Assembly (NCBI RefSeq): GCF_026130165.1
Contig: NZ_JAIHOM010000002.1
Span: 1 to 64,000, forward strand
DNA length: 64,000 nucleotides
Direction: 5' to 3'
From: Spirulina subsalsa FACHB-351
GTDB lineage: Bacteria; Cyanobacteriota; Cyanobacteriia; Cyanobacteriales; Spirulinaceae
The notes under the pieces are model-generated. The model ran no database searches, was not told the DNA's origin, and saw only the letters and a program-made list of their open reading frames with translations. Below are positions 1 to 6,217 of the stretch, piece by piece (the stretch's first letter is position 1; each line of letters starts with the position of its first letter). A program made the position numbers and the translations under genes.

Positions 1-790
1 CTCCAGTCGTTTCCCGTTGGATAGGAATATCCCCAGAAGGTGTCTCTACTCTCTGAATTGTAGGTGTTTCCGATGGGGATGGAGTTGTAGAAGTATCCCC
101 AGTCGTTTCCCGTTGGATAGGAGTTTCTCCTGAAGATGTCTCAACTTGTCTTTGAATTGTAGAAGTATCCCCAGTCGTTTCCCGTTGGATAGGAGTTTCT
201 CCTGAAGATGTCTCAACTTGTCTTTGAATTGTCGGAGTATCCCCAGTTGTTTCCCGTTGAATAGGAGTTTCTCCCGAAGATGTATCGACTTGTCTCTGAA
301 TTGTCGGAGTCTCTCCAGTCGTTTCCCGTTGGATAGGAATATCCCCAGAAGGTGTCTCTACTCTCTGAATCGTAGGTGTTTCCGATGGGGATGGAGTTGT
401 AGAAGTATCCCCAGTCGTTTCCCGTTGAATAGGAGTTTCTCCTGAAGATGTCTCAACTTGTCTTTGAATTGTCGGAGTATCCCCAGTTGTTTCCCGTTGA
501 ATAGGAGTTTCTCCTGAAGATGTATCGACTTGTCTCTGAATTGTCGGAGTCTCCCCAACTGTTTCCCGTTGAATAGGAGTTTCTCCTGAAGATGTATCGA
601 CTTGTCTCTGAATTGTCGGAGTCTCTCCAGTCGTTTCCCGTTGGATAGGAATATCCCCAGAAGGTGTCTCTACTCTCTGAATTGTAGGTGTTTCCGATGG
701 GGATGGAGTTGTAGAAGTATCCCCAGTCGTTTCCCGTTGGATAGGAGTTTCCCCTGAAGGTGTCTCGACTTGTCTCTGCACAAAACCAGT
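1..790. repeat. Coding tandem repeats of 72 and 96 bp
   Basis: The landmark CCAGTCGTTTCCCGTT (with small variations) recurs near 6, 102, 174, 246, 318, 414, 486, 558, 630 and 726. Spacings are 72 or 96 bp, all multiples of three, so the minus-strand reading frame is kept. Copies are nearly identical at DNA level, which suggests recent expansion or homogenisation. Confidence 0.9.
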
Positions 791-925
791 ATCAGAAGCA
801 ACTGATGAGGGAGTATCAACTATTGCAGGTTCAACTCCTAGAGGAGGGTCTCCTGCAATTTTTAGTTGAATGGGAGTTGTTGGAGGCAGAATTGAAGAGG
901 GAGGATGTGCTTCTGAAGTGGTCAT
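1..925 (-). CDS. Thr/Gln/Glu-rich tandem-repeat protein, 3' end outside window
   Basis: The minus-strand frame is open from an ATG at 925 to the left edge, so only the first ~308 codons are present. After ~55 non-repetitive residues (MTTSEAHPPSSILPPTTP...) it becomes tandem units built on IQRETTGDTSTIQRQVETSSGETP-like text, 24 residues long or 32 where a TPSPSETP-type insert is present. About ten units lie between roughly 1 and 790. No signal peptide or membrane segment is visible. It follows a contractile-tail tube gene on the same strand, so it may be a structural, linker or cargo part of that cluster; that is inference. Glutamine-arginine-rich stretches like this also occur in long DUF4157-type injection-system cargo proteins, but no DUF4157 core is in view. 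Function not recognised. Confidence 0.75.
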   Translation of the reverse strand, partial: MTTSEAHPPSSILPPTTPIQLKIAGDPPLGVEPAIVDTPSSVASDTGFVQRQVETPSGETPIQRETTGDTSTTPSPSETPTIQRVETPSGDIPIQRETTGETPTIQRQVDTSSGETPIQRETVGETPTIQRQVDTSSGETPIQRETTGDTPTIQRQVETSSGETPIQRETTGDTSTTPSPSETPTIQRVETPSGDIPIQRETTGETPTIQRQVDTSSGETPIQRETTGDTPTIQRQVETSSGETPIQRETTGDTSTIQRQVETSSGETPIQRETTGDTSTTPSPSETPTIQRVETPSGDIPIQRETTG

Positions 926-1073
926 GGCTAAAGATGATTAAATCAGTGATATTTTCAGCTTAAAATCATGGTCATATAACAGGAGTCTATAAAGGATGTA
1001 ATTGGTGGTTTTGATTTGCGGTTTATGGGGAATACAGATGACGTAATATTCTGTCGGATTTTGTAAAAACGAT

Positions 1074-1607
1074 TTAAACAAAATCTCCCAACTCATTGCG
1101 AGTCTTGAGGAAAACGGCACTACTTACACCAGTGTTAGAAATTTCTAAGGTTTCATAAGATAGGGTGATTTCTTCTAAGGCAACTCCCTTGCCTTTTGCC
1201 TTTAAGGATGGTGCTTTCCAACCAATGGGAAACGCGGCCATTAATGTCCAGTTTTGCATAATCTCGCCCGCTTGGTTAAAGATTAAAATATTGACATTTC
1301 GGCGCATTCCGGCTGAACTGTTGGGAGTTGGTTTAACTAAGGTTTGGGAGCGCTGAGTTTGCGCCAGCCATTGTAAAAATAGTAAGTTATCGGTAACGCC
1401 TCGTTTTAGTTTAATTGGTTTGAATTTGGCGGGGGAAATCAGGGAACGCTCCCGATCATTGACTCCTCCTTCTAAAAAGTTCTTGGGTTTTGCGTCCATA
1501 CTCAACCCCGAACACTCGCTAAAATAAGCGGTGATTTGTGACTCCATGACTACATAAAATCGATTCTCCTGTACATAATTTTCAACAATTCTGGTTGCAT
1601 TAACCAT
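1074..1607 (-). CDS. Contractile injection / phage-type tail tube protein (gp19-like)
   Basis: 177 aa. The family forms the inner tube of contractile tails and of extracellular or thylakoid-anchored contractile injection systems. Visible family features are an N-terminal strand leading to AYFSECSGLSM (the F-x-E-x-SGL pattern of gp19 tube proteins), a KLKRGVTDN segment, then NILIFNQAGEIMQNWTL and AAFPIGWKAPSL, and a C-terminal LEEITLSYETLEI strand. Length fits the family (~150-180 aa). It sits between a small protein upstream and a repeat protein downstream, all on the minus strand and probably one operon that continues beyond the left edge. No integrase, capsid or terminase is in view, so an injection system is favoured over a prophage, but that rests on genes outside the window. 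Confidence 0.8.
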   Translation of the reverse strand: MVNATRIVENYVQENRFYVVMESQITAYFSECSGLSMDAKPKNFLEGGVNDRERSLISPAKFKPIKLKRGVTDNLLFLQWLAQTQRSQTLVKPTPNSSAGMRRNVNILIFNQAGEIMQNWTLMAAFPIGWKAPSLKAKGKGVALEEITLSYETLEISNTGVSSAVFLKTRNELGDFV

Positions 1608-1648
1608 GATTTTGTGTTATCCTTTTTTATATAATGGGGTGCTTGTGA

Positions 1649-1921
1649 CTAAAATTGGCTACGCTCCCGTCGGGAACGGAGATCCTCCTCCATGAGTTCG
1701 TAAACGCGATCGCCCACTTTGCGAATGACACTAGGTTCATTCAAGACTTGATGGGCAATCCGTCCCAAACGGGGCAGGTTTTCAAAGTGCTTGGTTTGTA
1801 GGACGATTGGGGCAGTGTACCCGGCCGGAGTTGTGGCATCTCCAAGGGGTTCTAAGGAGGGTTGGGTTAGTCCTTCGGCAGTTTTCCAGTTGCTGTTCTG
1901 TTTAAAGGGAAATTTGGCCAT
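1649..1921 (-). CDS. Small conserved-looking protein upstream of the tail tube gene
   Basis: 90 aa from the ATG at 1921, beginning MAKFPFKQNSNWKTAEG. An AGGGGG ribosome-binding sequence just upstream supports this start over the longer open frame beginning at 2020. The C-terminus is charged (LMEEDLRSRRERSQF). No membrane segment or known motif is recognised. It ends ~40 bp before the tube gene on the same strand, so it is probably co-transcribed and may be a small accessory part of the injection-system cluster. Function unknown. Confidence 0.6.
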   Translation of the reverse strand: MAKFPFKQNSNWKTAEGLTQPSLEPLGDATTPAGYTAPIVLQTKHFENLPRLGRIAHQVLNEPSVIRKVGDRVYELMEEDLRSRRERSQF

Positions 1922-2186: not shown

Positions 2187-2786
2187 ATGGCTTATCAATT
2201 ACCCCCTTTACCCTACGATTACACGGCTTTAGAACCGTACATTTCTAAAAGTACCCTTGAGTTCCACCATGACAAGCATCATGCCGCCTATGTGAACAAT
2301 TACAACGCGGCTGTTCAAGGGACTGACTATGATAGCCAAAGCATTGAAGAGGTTATCAAAGCCGTTGCAGGGGATCCGGAGAAAGCGGGTCTTTTCAACA
2401 ATGCCGCCCAAGCTTGGAATCATAGCTTTTACTGGAACTGCATAAAACCCAATGGAGGAGGGACTCCCACCGGGGCTTTAGCGGATAAAATCGCGGCAGA
2501 TTTTGGCAGTTTTGATGCCTTTAAAGAAGCATTTGCCAAAGCGGGGGCCACTCAATTCGGGAGTGGTTGGGCTTGGTTGGTGCTGGATGGCGGTACCCTG
2601 AAGGTGACAAAAACCCTAAATGCAGAAAATCCCATGACGGCAGGTCAAACCCCTCTGTTAACGATGGATGTGTGGGAACACGCTTATTATTTGGATTACC
2701 AAAATGCCCGTCCTAAGTATATTGAGACATTCTTAAGCAGTTTGGTGAATTGGGATTTTGTGGCTCAAAACTTGGCGGCTGCCTAG
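2187..2786 (+). CDS. sodB: Iron superoxide dismutase
   Basis: 199 aa, full length. Converts superoxide to O2 and H2O2 in the cytoplasm. The four metal ligands are visible: H27 (LEFHHDKHH), H79 (AWNHSFYW), D161 and H165 (MDVWEHAYY). The ATQFGSGWAWL segment and the absence of a leader sequence point to the Fe-type cytosolic enzyme rather than the membrane Mn form. It is divergent from the injection-type genes, with ~265 bp between starts, and is followed by a strong hairpin terminator. No operon partner. Confidence 0.97.
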   Translation: MAYQLPPLPYDYTALEPYISKSTLEFHHDKHHAAYVNNYNAAVQGTDYDSQSIEEVIKAVAGDPEKAGLFNNAAQAWNHSFYWNCIKPNGGGTPTGALADKIAADFGSFDAFKEAFAKAGATQFGSGWAWLVLDGGTLKVTKTLNAENPMTAGQTPLLTMDVWEHAYYLDYQNARPKYIETFLSSLVNWDFVAQNLAAA

Positions 2787-2884
2787 GGTGTTGAGTCGGG
2801 ATCTAATCGTCAAATTTAGATCAGAGTTAGATCAGAGTAGGTGAGTTGGAATAGTTCAGGTAAACTGTTCCATTGTGCCTAAAG

Positions 2885-2932
2885 AAACCCGGTTTCTGGC
2901 GTTTATGTTTTGGCCAAAAACCGGGTTTTTTT
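2885..2932 (+). terminator. Hairpin terminator after sodB, built from an AAACCCGGTTT palindrome
   Basis: A near-perfect inverted repeat (2885-2900 with 2913-2928, arms AAACCCGGTTTCTGGC and GCCAAAAACCGGGTTT) ends in a T run. It lies ~100 bp after the sodB stop. The AGAAACCCGGTTTCT core recurs at 36.55-36.61 kb, so it belongs to a dispersed palindrome family that here may double as a terminator. Confidence 0.7.
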
Positions 2933-2949
2933 GTGGTGATTTTTACACT

Positions 2950-3088
2950 TATAGCGCTGCGCGCTGTTGTAGTTACAGTACTGAAAAACCGCAGTCTTCA
3001 CTGTACGCGATCGCCATAAGTCGTTTCCTGGGATTTTTGTCAACTCACCTCATTCTAACCTGTAATCACAGTAGCGCGCAGCGCTATA
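2950..3088. repeat. MITE-like element with ~30-bp terminal inverted repeats
   Basis: The outer 16 bp (TATAGCGCTGCGCGCT at 2950-2965) are repeated exactly inverted at 3073-3088. The similarity continues inward imperfectly for about 13 bp (GTTGTAGTTACAG against ACTGTGATTACAG). The ~80-bp interior has no coding potential. It looks like a small non-autonomous element or stable cruciform sequence between sodB and the hydrolase gene. The rest of the 2787-3276 gap holds only the terminator described separately, C-rich low-complexity sequence and a solo repeat end. Confidence 0.65.
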
Positions 3089-3221
3089 TCTCTCTTCTGT
3101 CACTCTAGGCAGAGGAACAAGAAAAGTCATTCCAAAGATAGACCAGAGTTTTTCCTTTTTTAGGGTCTCCCCTTTATTTTACCTCTCCCACAGTGACAGA
3201 ACAAAGTTACACTCGATTCCC

Positions 3222-3279
3222 AAATCCCCTGCTCCCCGACTCCGGATTCCCGACTGCCGGACTTATTCAACAAGCCCTA
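3222..3279. repeat. Solo end of the TAGGGCTTGCTGAATAA repeat family
   Basis: C-rich low-complexity sequence leads into TTATTCAACAAGCCCTA at 3263-3279. The final CTA, read on the minus strand, is the TAG stop codon of the hydrolase gene. No matching opposite terminus is obvious nearby. Confidence 0.6.
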
Positions 3280-4146
3280 GCTATGACTGACAATCCACTC
3301 TTGGAGGATGGGATTGACTAATTCTGGGGCTTCATCTTGGGGACAATGACCTACTCCGGGTAAGGGGATGAATTTTTCCACGGTGGGGAGGTCAGCAAAT
3401 TTTTGACCCCACTCGAATTTTTCCCAAGGGTCTTCAGTTCCCCATAAGATCAGGGTAGGACAGGGCATGATGGGGTATAAGTCCTCGGGAAGTGGGCCTT
3501 GAGAGTAGGTTGTGAAGGCAATAAAGACATCGGCCGCGCCTTCATCGGCGGCGGGTTTCATTAACAGGGTGAGAAGCTCATCAGTGACGGCTTCGGGGCG
3601 GTGGTAGGCTTGCAGGAGGGCTTGACGAACGAATTGAGGACGGGCCATAAAGTGAAAAAACCGATAGCCAAACCAAGGCTGACGGAGGAGGTTCTGTAAG
3701 ATGGGGGTACTCAGTTGTTGATGCCAAGGGATTTCGTGGCGTTTCCGTTCGTGTAGCATTCGTAGGGAACAGTTCAAGGTGGCGACTCCTCGCACCCAGT
3801 CGGGATAGGTGACGGCGGTTTGCATGGCGACGATACAACCGATGGAGTTCCCAATGAGAAAGACGGGGGTTTGTACGATTTCTTGGCAAAAGTCGGCGAT
3901 TTGTTGCGCCCAAGTTTCAAAGGTATAGTTGAGTTGGCTGGGGTGGGGTTTGGCGGATGCTCCAAAACCGATGAGGTCGATGGCATAGACGCGCATTGTT
4001 TGACCTAAGACGGGGAGGGTTTTGCGCCAGTGGCCCCAAGATGCACCAAAGCCGTGAATGAGGATAACGGCGGGTTCTCCGGTGCCACACTGTTGATAAC
4101 AGATGTTATAGCCTTGCCATTGCCAAGTTTGAGGGAGGGTGTTCAT
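3277..4146 (-). CDS. Alpha/beta-fold hydrolase
   Basis: 289 aa. Canonical alpha/beta hydrolase: oxyanion region LIHGFGASWGHW, nucleophile elbow IGNSIGC with serine near residue 100, an acidic residue around WGTEDPW, and a C-terminal histidine in GVGHCPQDE. A cap region lies between about residues 130 and 210. The sequence resembles the cyanobacterial/plastid group that includes pheophytinase- and dephytylase-like esterases, but the substrate cannot be read from the sequence. The stop codon TAG is supplied by the terminus of a dispersed repeat (3263-3279). Single gene; it lies downstream of hemA on the same strand, separated by a 208-bp repeat element. Confidence 0.85.
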   Translation of the reverse strand: MNTLPQTWQWQGYNICYQQCGTGEPAVILIHGFGASWGHWRKTLPVLGQTMRVYAIDLIGFGASAKPHPSQLNYTFETWAQQIADFCQEIVQTPVFLIGNSIGCIVAMQTAVTYPDWVRGVATLNCSLRMLHERKRHEIPWHQQLSTPILQNLLRQPWFGYRFFHFMARPQFVRQALLQAYHRPEAVTDELLTLLMKPAADEGAADVFIAFTTYSQGPLPEDLYPIMPCPTLILWGTEDPWEKFEWGQKFADLPTVEKFIPLPGVGHCPQDEAPELVNPILQEWIVSHS

Positions 4147-5851: not shown

Positions 5852-6217
5852 TTAACTTGGCAGGACGTATCCAACCAAGCCAGAGGGAATCTCTCCCCAA
5901 GCGTGAGTTCCGGTATGCCCTACCGTACTTAGTCCCCTTTTCAAAATGTTAATAGCGGCGTTGGTATCTCTATCTTCTACATAACCACAATGGGGACAAA
6001 CATGGGTTCTTGTCCATAGAGATTTAAATATCTTTTCTCCACAATTAGAACAATTCTGACTGGTATTATGGGGCGGTACTGCTACCGTAGCCTTACCATA
6101 TTTAAAGCCAAAATACTCTAGCCATTGTCGAAAAGATAAAAGGTTTGTCATAGGATCTTTTATCCCCCCTAGCCCCCCTTTGAAAGGGGGGGAAACCTGT
6201 CCTAGCCCCCCTTTCAA
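5852..6217 (-). pseudogene. tnpB: C-terminal remnant of an IS200/IS605-family TnpB (OrfB)
   Basis: 121 codons are open, but only the part from about residue 24 onward is TnpB. It shows WLEYFGFKYGKATVAVPPHN, the four-cysteine zinc finger SQNCSNCG...HVCPHCGY and the RuvC III motif DRDTNAAINIL. The usual ~300 N-terminal residues with RuvC I and II are absent. The first ~22 codons are translated from the adjacent CCCCCTTTCAAAGGGGGG repeat and are not protein-like. Non-functional as a nuclease. No TnpA is nearby. Confidence 0.85.

What the first reader, a model, noticed from the sequence alone, without database searches (positions are those of the whole stretch)
1..1921. Edge of a contractile injection system cluster
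A gp19-like tube protein, a small partner and a repeat protein form a minus-strand unit running off the window. Cyanobacteria are known to carry thylakoid-anchored contractile injection systems, and this may be one. No sheath, baseplate or AAA gene is in view, so the type cannot be fixed.
Basis: partly seen in the sequence, partly recalled or inferred. Interest (0 to 1): 0.55.

Follow-up and report, generated by a model that had tools for sequence, protein, structure and literature searches.

The report
Giant repeat protein inside bacterial syringe
The window edge carries part of a phage-tail-like bacterial injection machine, and its unfinished repeat gene belongs to an undescribed protein family that probably sits inside the syringe tube and may set the tube's length or hold its cargo.

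Summary
Confirmed: window 1-1921 holds a CIS unit. The gp19-like gene (1074-1607) is nearer to the Cis5 tube initiator than to the main tube. Window base 1 is the end of contig C180, broken inside the repeat gene. In a complete same-genus genome the unit is small protein, Cis5, repeat protein (REP, 1516 aa), Cis7 adaptor, Cis8 spike, and then it stops. Sheath, tubes, caps and AAA lie 1.1 Mb away, gp25 and baseplate 1.2 Mb away: one CIS in three places. It resembles the Streptomyces cytoplasmic CIS (class IId), not the thylakoid-anchored one; prophage is not supported.

REP appears undescribed: a largely disordered protein of 50-2534 aa with a PLG start, a variable middle and a C-terminal helix shared with the small protein. 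The helix ORF precedes Cis7 in 47 of 51 held-out loci. Streptomyces has a counterpart of about 1300 aa beside its tube initiator, where three papers report no tape measure. [IVL]QR is 14-54 times over-represented in REP and 13 times in N-termini of eCIS-core (DUF4157) proteins. REP probably anchors at the spike and fills the tube. A ruler role or an IQR docking code is possible but unproven; very short REPs count against a universal ruler.

The parts
2..925 (-). REP: N-terminal 308 aa of the giant IQR-repeat protein; the rest is lost at the contig end
   Evidence: Open to base 1; contig end; intact 1516-aa counterpart with C-terminal helix in G001; same gene position in relatives
1..775 (.). 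Tandem repeat array inside REP, 72-bp (24-aa) unit and 312-bp super-unit
   Evidence: Tandem Repeats Finder; IQR spacing mostly 11 and 13 aa
1074..1607 (-). gp19-like tube initiator (Cis5-like), 177 aa
   Evidence: Pfam gp19 5e-30; CIS5_fam 6e-18 against CIS1_fam 1e-4; for the 97% identical G001 protein the best PDB hits include 7aeb_Y, Anabaena All3323 and Pvc5
1649..1921 (-). SMALL: 90-aa partner whose C-terminal helix resembles that of REP
   Evidence: No Pfam, PHROG or NCBIfam hit; helix found by iterated HMM (window_1652_2041, i-E 1e-7); REP/SMALL profile score 35.7 against a shuffled maximum of 20.7

Best explanation
The window edge is the tube-initiator/spike module of a Streptomyces-like (class IId-like) contractile injection system whose genes are split over three chromosomal places. 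The unfinished repeat gene encodes REP. Its C-terminal helix most likely docks where the tube initiator, Cis7 and the Cis8 spike meet, in the manner of the Cis6/Alg6 plug, and its long disordered middle fills or threads the tube lumen. Shown: gene identity, gene order, scattering, disorder prediction, conserved ends, and motif enrichment shared with eCIS-core (DUF4157) proteins. Inferred: docking at the spike, lying in the lumen, and a role in assembly or in holding cargo.
For: Module order in G001. Components of the same system elsewhere in G001: sheath, three tubes, two caps and AAA at 3.16 Mb; gp25 and a baseplate-J-like gene at 0.92 Mb. In some relatives these genes are adjacent: G005, G036, G010, G050. 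REP sits between Cis5 and Cis7, where Anabaena-like clusters have the 54-67 aa Cis6, and in G057 the same helix stands alone as a 50-aa ORF in that slot (E 2e-5, not in training). The helix ORF precedes Cis7 in 47 of 51 held-out loci. AlphaFold2 of a 270-aa REP: mean pLDDT 53, only helix 237-261 confident. [IVL]QR observed/expected: 318/22.8 in 56 cyanobacterial REPs, 460/8.5 in 28 Streptomyces REP-like ORFs, 149/11.1 in the N-terminal parts of 31 DUF4157-like ORFs and 7/2.8 downstream; five of five of those DUF4157-like ORFs tested are Pfam eCIS_core. The Alg6 plug is an N-terminal strand, a flexible loop and a C-terminal helix, and is needed for assembly (passages of PMC8894135); a loop of Cis6 reaches into the tube lumen (passages of PMC8894136).
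Against: No sequence similarity to Cis6 is detectable: profile score 9.9, shuffled maximum 13.0; no PDB hit. Four of 51 held-out loci lack the helix ORF, two of them with only 51-52 bp between Cis5 and Cis7. Short REPs of about 270 aa have 0-1 IQ motifs, so the motif is not universal. The cyanobacterial background is itself about two-fold over expectation (480/190.6; 553/281.9). The published Streptomyces particle structure reports no plug-like density, and the unknown proteins that PMC10020575 names from mass spectrometry are Sco4242, Sco4256 and Sco4251, whereas by my positional inference the REP counterpart would be SCO4249.
Confidence: 0.6

Rival explanations
1. REP is the missing tape measure: tube length follows REP length. 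The C-terminal helix holds the baseplate hub and the conserved N-terminus marks the distal end.
For: Conserved ends with a middle of variable length. Gene next to the tube initiator, Cis7 and spike. Streptomyces particles are uniform in length (268 nm, 60 tube rings) although three papers find no tape measure gene (passages read; section). Streptomyces REP-like ORFs with a recognised start average 1304 aa, SD 103, range 1068-1486, n 22; at least one of these has masked sequence.
Against: REP ranges from 50 to 2534 aa; 50-330 aa seems too short for a ruler of a normal tube. Length is not tightly conserved even within Streptomyces. No tube length is known for any of the cyanobacteria studied here.
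Confidence: 0.25
2. REP is an injected effector or an effector carrier that shares the IQR loading motif with eCIS-core proteins.
For: [IVL]QR is enriched in both; tape-measure-like effectors are reported in Streptomyces CIS (Tme, Sle1; passages).
Against: No toxin or enzyme domain by Pfam or NCBIfam in the REPs scanned; the conserved part is a C-terminal helix and not an enzymatic domain; the gene lies among structural genes and not at the cluster edge.
Confidence: 0.25
3. REP's low-complexity middle has no specific role; it is a neutral expansion on a small plug.
For: Stand-alone 50-aa and 132-195 aa versions exist in one family; length varies widely.
Against: The [IVL]QR motif recurs in two phyla far above expectation; the motif P.SWSSIxDLL is kept in 35 of 56 REPs over 230 aa; long REPs occur in many genera.
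Confidence: 0.15
4. The module is a prophage tail remnant.
For: gp19, GpU-like and GPD-like folds are shared with phage tails.
Against: AAA ATPase and Pvc16_N caps in the same genome; CIS5_fam and VgrG_rel hits; neighbouring genes look like housekeeping genes.
Confidence: 0.03

Closest known systems
CISSc of Streptomyces coelicolor (class IId, cytoplasmic CIS)
   Same: Closest solved spike (9gtr_q, E 4e-56). Order in Streptomyces: sheath, tube, REP-like ORF, tube initiator, Cis7, Cis8, gp25, baseplate J. Disordered REP-like ORF of about 1300 aa rich in VQR/IQR.
   Different: REP lies before the tube initiator in Streptomyces and after it in cyanobacteria. In G001 the system is split over three places. 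The cyanobacterial unit has the extra SMALL gene.
Thylakoid-anchored CIS of Anabaena (All3313-All3327)
   Same: Cis5, Cis7 and Cis8 homologues; a gene between Cis5 and Cis7.
   Different: Its Cis6 slot holds a 54-67 aa protein in the four relatives read. Spikes are separated by a long, fully supported branch. No spike this close (E 1e-60) in G000 or G001.
Cis6/Alg6/Afp6 spike plug
   Same: Gene position; architecture N-end, flexible stretch, C-terminal helix; basic ER-rich helix end (my reading).
   Different: No detectable sequence similarity; up to about 40 times longer.
Tape measure proteins (Afp14, phage TMP) and tape-measure-related effectors Tme and Sle1
   Same: Long protein encoded beside tube and baseplate-hub genes.
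   Different: No coiled coil or membrane helices were predicted in the one REP modelled; repeats and disorder instead. Sle1 is encoded upstream of the sheath in the reverse direction (PMC13277306 passages).

Membership tests
Contractile injection system | Sheath, gp19 tube, gp25, VgrG-like spike, AAA ATPase and Pvc16 cap in the genome | tested here: met
   they are not in one cluster in G000 or G001
Class IId eCIS (Streptomyces-like) | Spike closest to CISSc, and Streptomyces-like gene order | tested here: inconclusive
   Best PDB spike is CISSc; B spikes form one clade on the Streptomyces side of the tCIS branch in a midpoint-rooted tree; order shared in part. No sheath-based class tree was built
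Thylakoid-anchored CIS | Cis13 membrane segment, Cis19 crown, Cis12 extension | not tested
   No query was run for these; spike affinity argues against
Cis5 tube initiator | gp19 fold, nearer to Cis5 than to Cis1, encoded by Cis7/Cis8 | tested here: met
   CIS5_fam hit is under its curated cut-off, so it is a divergent member
Cis6 spike plug | Sequence similarity to Cis6 | tested here: not met
   score below the shuffled maximum; no PDB hit
Cis6 spike plug | Gene between Cis5 and Cis7 with a C-terminal helix | tested here: met
   47 of 51 held-out loci; helix modelled with pLDDT 82-90
Tape measure protein | Protein length sets tube length | not testable with these tools
   No tube lengths for these species
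Prophage | Capsid, portal or terminase genes nearby | tested here: not met
   By reading ORFs only; no family search for these genes

The most novel reading that the evidence does not exclude
REP is the unrecognised ruler/plug of class IId-like injection systems in at least two phyla, and [IVL]QR is a short docking code for the tube lumen that REP displays up to about 95 times and that eCIS-core (DUF4157) cargo copies in order to be loaded.
Probability: 0.2. Interest if true: 0.88.

Novelty: new variant of a known kind. Interest (0 to 1): 0.62.

Why it matters
Class IId systems drive cell death in Streptomyces and occur in filamentous cyanobacteria, and how their tubes reach a uniform length without a tape measure gene is open in the papers read. 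REP is a concrete candidate, overlooked because it is low-complexity and breaks assemblies: 31 of 103 loci end within 8 kb after Cis5 without reaching Cis7 (in one of these, L057, Cis7 is present on the other strand). A motif shared between REP and cargo would give a testable loading code. The scattered gene layout also means that cluster-based CIS surveys would undercount cyanobacterial systems: 19 of 61 well-covered loci show no sheath, cap, AAA, gp25 or baseplate gene within about 10 kb.

Tried and rejected
Prophage: no phage head genes seen. Thylakoid-anchored type: spike affinity is against it. REP as a detectable Cis6 homologue: not supported, kept as analogy only. Idea that each cluster has a fixed total of two plug helices (SMALL plus REP, or REP with two): rejected, because SMALL was found in clusters with two-helix REPs as well. 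Idea of one IQR per tube ring: dropped, because spacing differs between lineages (about 12 aa here, about 18 to 49 by eye). Link of REP to the Streptomyces ORF: profile-profile score 16.8 is within the shuffled maximum of 22.4, and the REP-only HMM gave 5 of 10 hits on target with a better hit in the reversed control. The link rests on the combined REP+SMALL HMM (32 hits of 7054 ORFs at E up to 10, 30 of them among the 43 REP-like ORFs; reversed control 1 hit; best E 0.03), gene position and VQR/IQR content. First genome-contig scan with the gp19 protein found nothing. No supplementary files were readable, so mass-spectrometry tables were not seen.

Full report
What is there. The window is bases 1-64000 of contig C180 (89,706 bp) of a draft genome. 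Its first 1.9 kb carry, on the minus strand, SMALL (1649-1921), a gp19-like tube protein (1074-1607) and the start of a repeat protein, REP, that runs into the contig end. The repeats (72-bp unit, 312-bp super-unit) probably explain why the assembly stops there.

What lies beyond the edge. A same-genus genome in two contigs (G001) has the gp19 gene at 97% identity. Its order is SMALL (90 aa), Cis5-like (177 aa), REP (1516 aa, 93 IQR/IQP motifs), a CIS_tube adaptor (Cis7, Pfam E 5e-19) and a VgrG-like spike (Cis8, Phage_base_V E 3e-25), and then a gene without a Pfam hit. The rest of a CIS is elsewhere: sheath, three tubes, two Pvc16_N caps and an AAA ATPase at 3.16 Mb, and gp25 with a baseplate-J-like gene at 0.92 Mb (Pfam names are from the own-genome copies on C153). 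The own genome shows the same pieces on C180, C153 and C135. A second system, A, lies on C87 and C117; those contigs also break inside an IQ-repeat gene placed between a gp19-like gene and Cis7.

Same system, once together. In relatives the module stands beside the B-type sheath, tubes, caps, AAA or gp25 (G005, G010, G036, G050). I read the split as dispersal of a once contiguous cluster; this direction is an inference. The gp19 orthologue (E up to 1e-25) is in 99 of 388 genomes sampled from the order. I analysed 103 such loci. Of 61 with at least 9.3 kb upstream and 9 kb downstream, 17 have the sheath in reach, 17 AAA or cap, 27 gp25 or baseplate, and 19 none of these.

Type. The spike is closest in the PDB to that of S. 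coelicolor (9gtr, E 4e-56), and less close to Anabaena All3320 (3e-28). In a tree of 28 spikes, 15 B-type sequences form one group (98/96), 8 Streptomyces another (100/100) and 4 tCIS-like a third (100/100) on a long branch; the system A spike is a long branch whose place is unsure, and the root is a midpoint. I therefore call it class IId-like without claiming the class.

The REP family. An HMM of ten REP C-termini, searched against 12,665 ORFs, found REP C-termini and, in G057, a 50-aa ORF between Cis5 and Cis7; with iteration the SMALL proteins joined, while the reversed control gave no hit at i-E 0.01 or better. On new loci, 47 of 51 with Cis7 in reach (16 training loci left out) have the helix ORF between Cis5 and Cis7; misses are L158, L193, L211 and L218. 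Another 41 of 103 loci show no Cis7 on the same strand, 31 of them because the DNA ends within 8 kb (L057 among these has Cis7 on the other strand) and 10 with over 9 kb read. REP measures 50 to 2534 aa (partial at contig ends or frame breaks in some rows). Conserved are the N-terminal PLG stretch, a P.SWSSIxDLL motif (35 of 56) and the helix. AlphaFold2 with 13 sequences gives confidence only to the helix. None of the four REPs or REP-like ORFs scanned hit an NCBIfam family, and the Streptomyces one hit no Pfam family.

Streptomyces. Clusters fetched with the S. coelicolor spike (49 loci) have an ORF of about 1300 aa directly before the tube initiator, ending in a similar helix. The combined REP+SMALL HMM, with no Streptomyces in training, gives 32 hits among 7054 ORFs at E up to 10, 30 of them this ORF; but individual E-values are weak (best 0.03), and the direct REP-Streptomyces profile comparison is not above shuffled controls. 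Three papers state that a typical tape measure gene is absent from such clusters (PMC10066040, section read; PMC12237407 and PMC10286715, passages read).

The IQR motif. [IVL]QR occurs 460 times against 8.5 expected in 28 Streptomyces REP-like ORFs, 318 against 22.8 in 56 cyanobacterial REPs, and 149 against 11.1 in the N-terminal parts of 31 ORFs with the HExxH signature of DUF4157, against 7 and 2.8 in their C-terminal parts. Five of five of these ORFs tested are Pfam eCIS_core. Backgrounds: 173 against 124 (Streptomyces), 480 against 190.6 (cyanobacteria, truncated REPs included). ORFs over 200 aa that are rich in the motif: 28 of 327 in Streptomyces, 26 of them REP-like by rule and one more by its start; 55 of 881 in cyanobacteria, of which 10 REP and 26 DUF4157-like by rule; of the other 19, most are REP fragments or contig-edge pieces by my reading, and two more proved to be eCIS_core. 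In searches for DUF4157 with contractile injection and motif, and with intrinsically disordered, I saw no paper describing this motif (listings and passages only).

Mechanism. Position, helix and disorder fit a protein held at the spike with its body in the tube, like an expanded Alg6/Cis6, whose loop reaches into the lumen (passages of PMC8894135 and PMC8894136). Sequence does not show kinship with Cis6. Ruler, cargo scaffold and neutral expansion remain open; very short REPs speak against a universal ruler.

Noticed in passing
window 2950-3090: Short dispersed repeat with inverted ends (ATAGCGCTGCGCGCT ... AGCGCGCAGCGCTAT); its first 50 bp recur at five other places in the genome at 89-96% identity. 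Looks like a MITE; the ends were read by eye.
   Followed up: partly
window 5852-6217 (-): ORF whose end reads like the zinc-ribbon part of an OrfB-type transposase, apparently a fragment (my reading).
   Followed up: no
window 2187-4146 compared with L048 7776-9235: Gene order beyond the superoxide dismutase gene differs between the window genome and G001, so a rearrangement breakpoint lies beside the CIS module.
   Followed up: no
L074 11207-17653; L050 and L076 in G001: System A carries a giant eCIS-core-like protein (2148 aa in G000) with nested repeats of about 130 aa; repeat number seems to differ between the two genomes.
   Followed up: no
L053 6832-9189, L055 12404-14755 and others: A protein of about 785 aa with a PBP_like_2 domain (L053: E 3e-9) precedes SMALL; ORFs of similar size precede it in several other relatives. 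L155 3555-9371 joins an IQR-rich N-terminus to a PBP_like_2 domain, so it may be a CIS effector family.
   Followed up: partly
L211, L218: Cis5 and Cis7 only 51-52 bp apart, no REP between and no SMALL found.
   Followed up: no
L054, L057, L058, L060, L150, L151, L153: REP or its last ORF carries two helix copies in tandem.
   Followed up: partly
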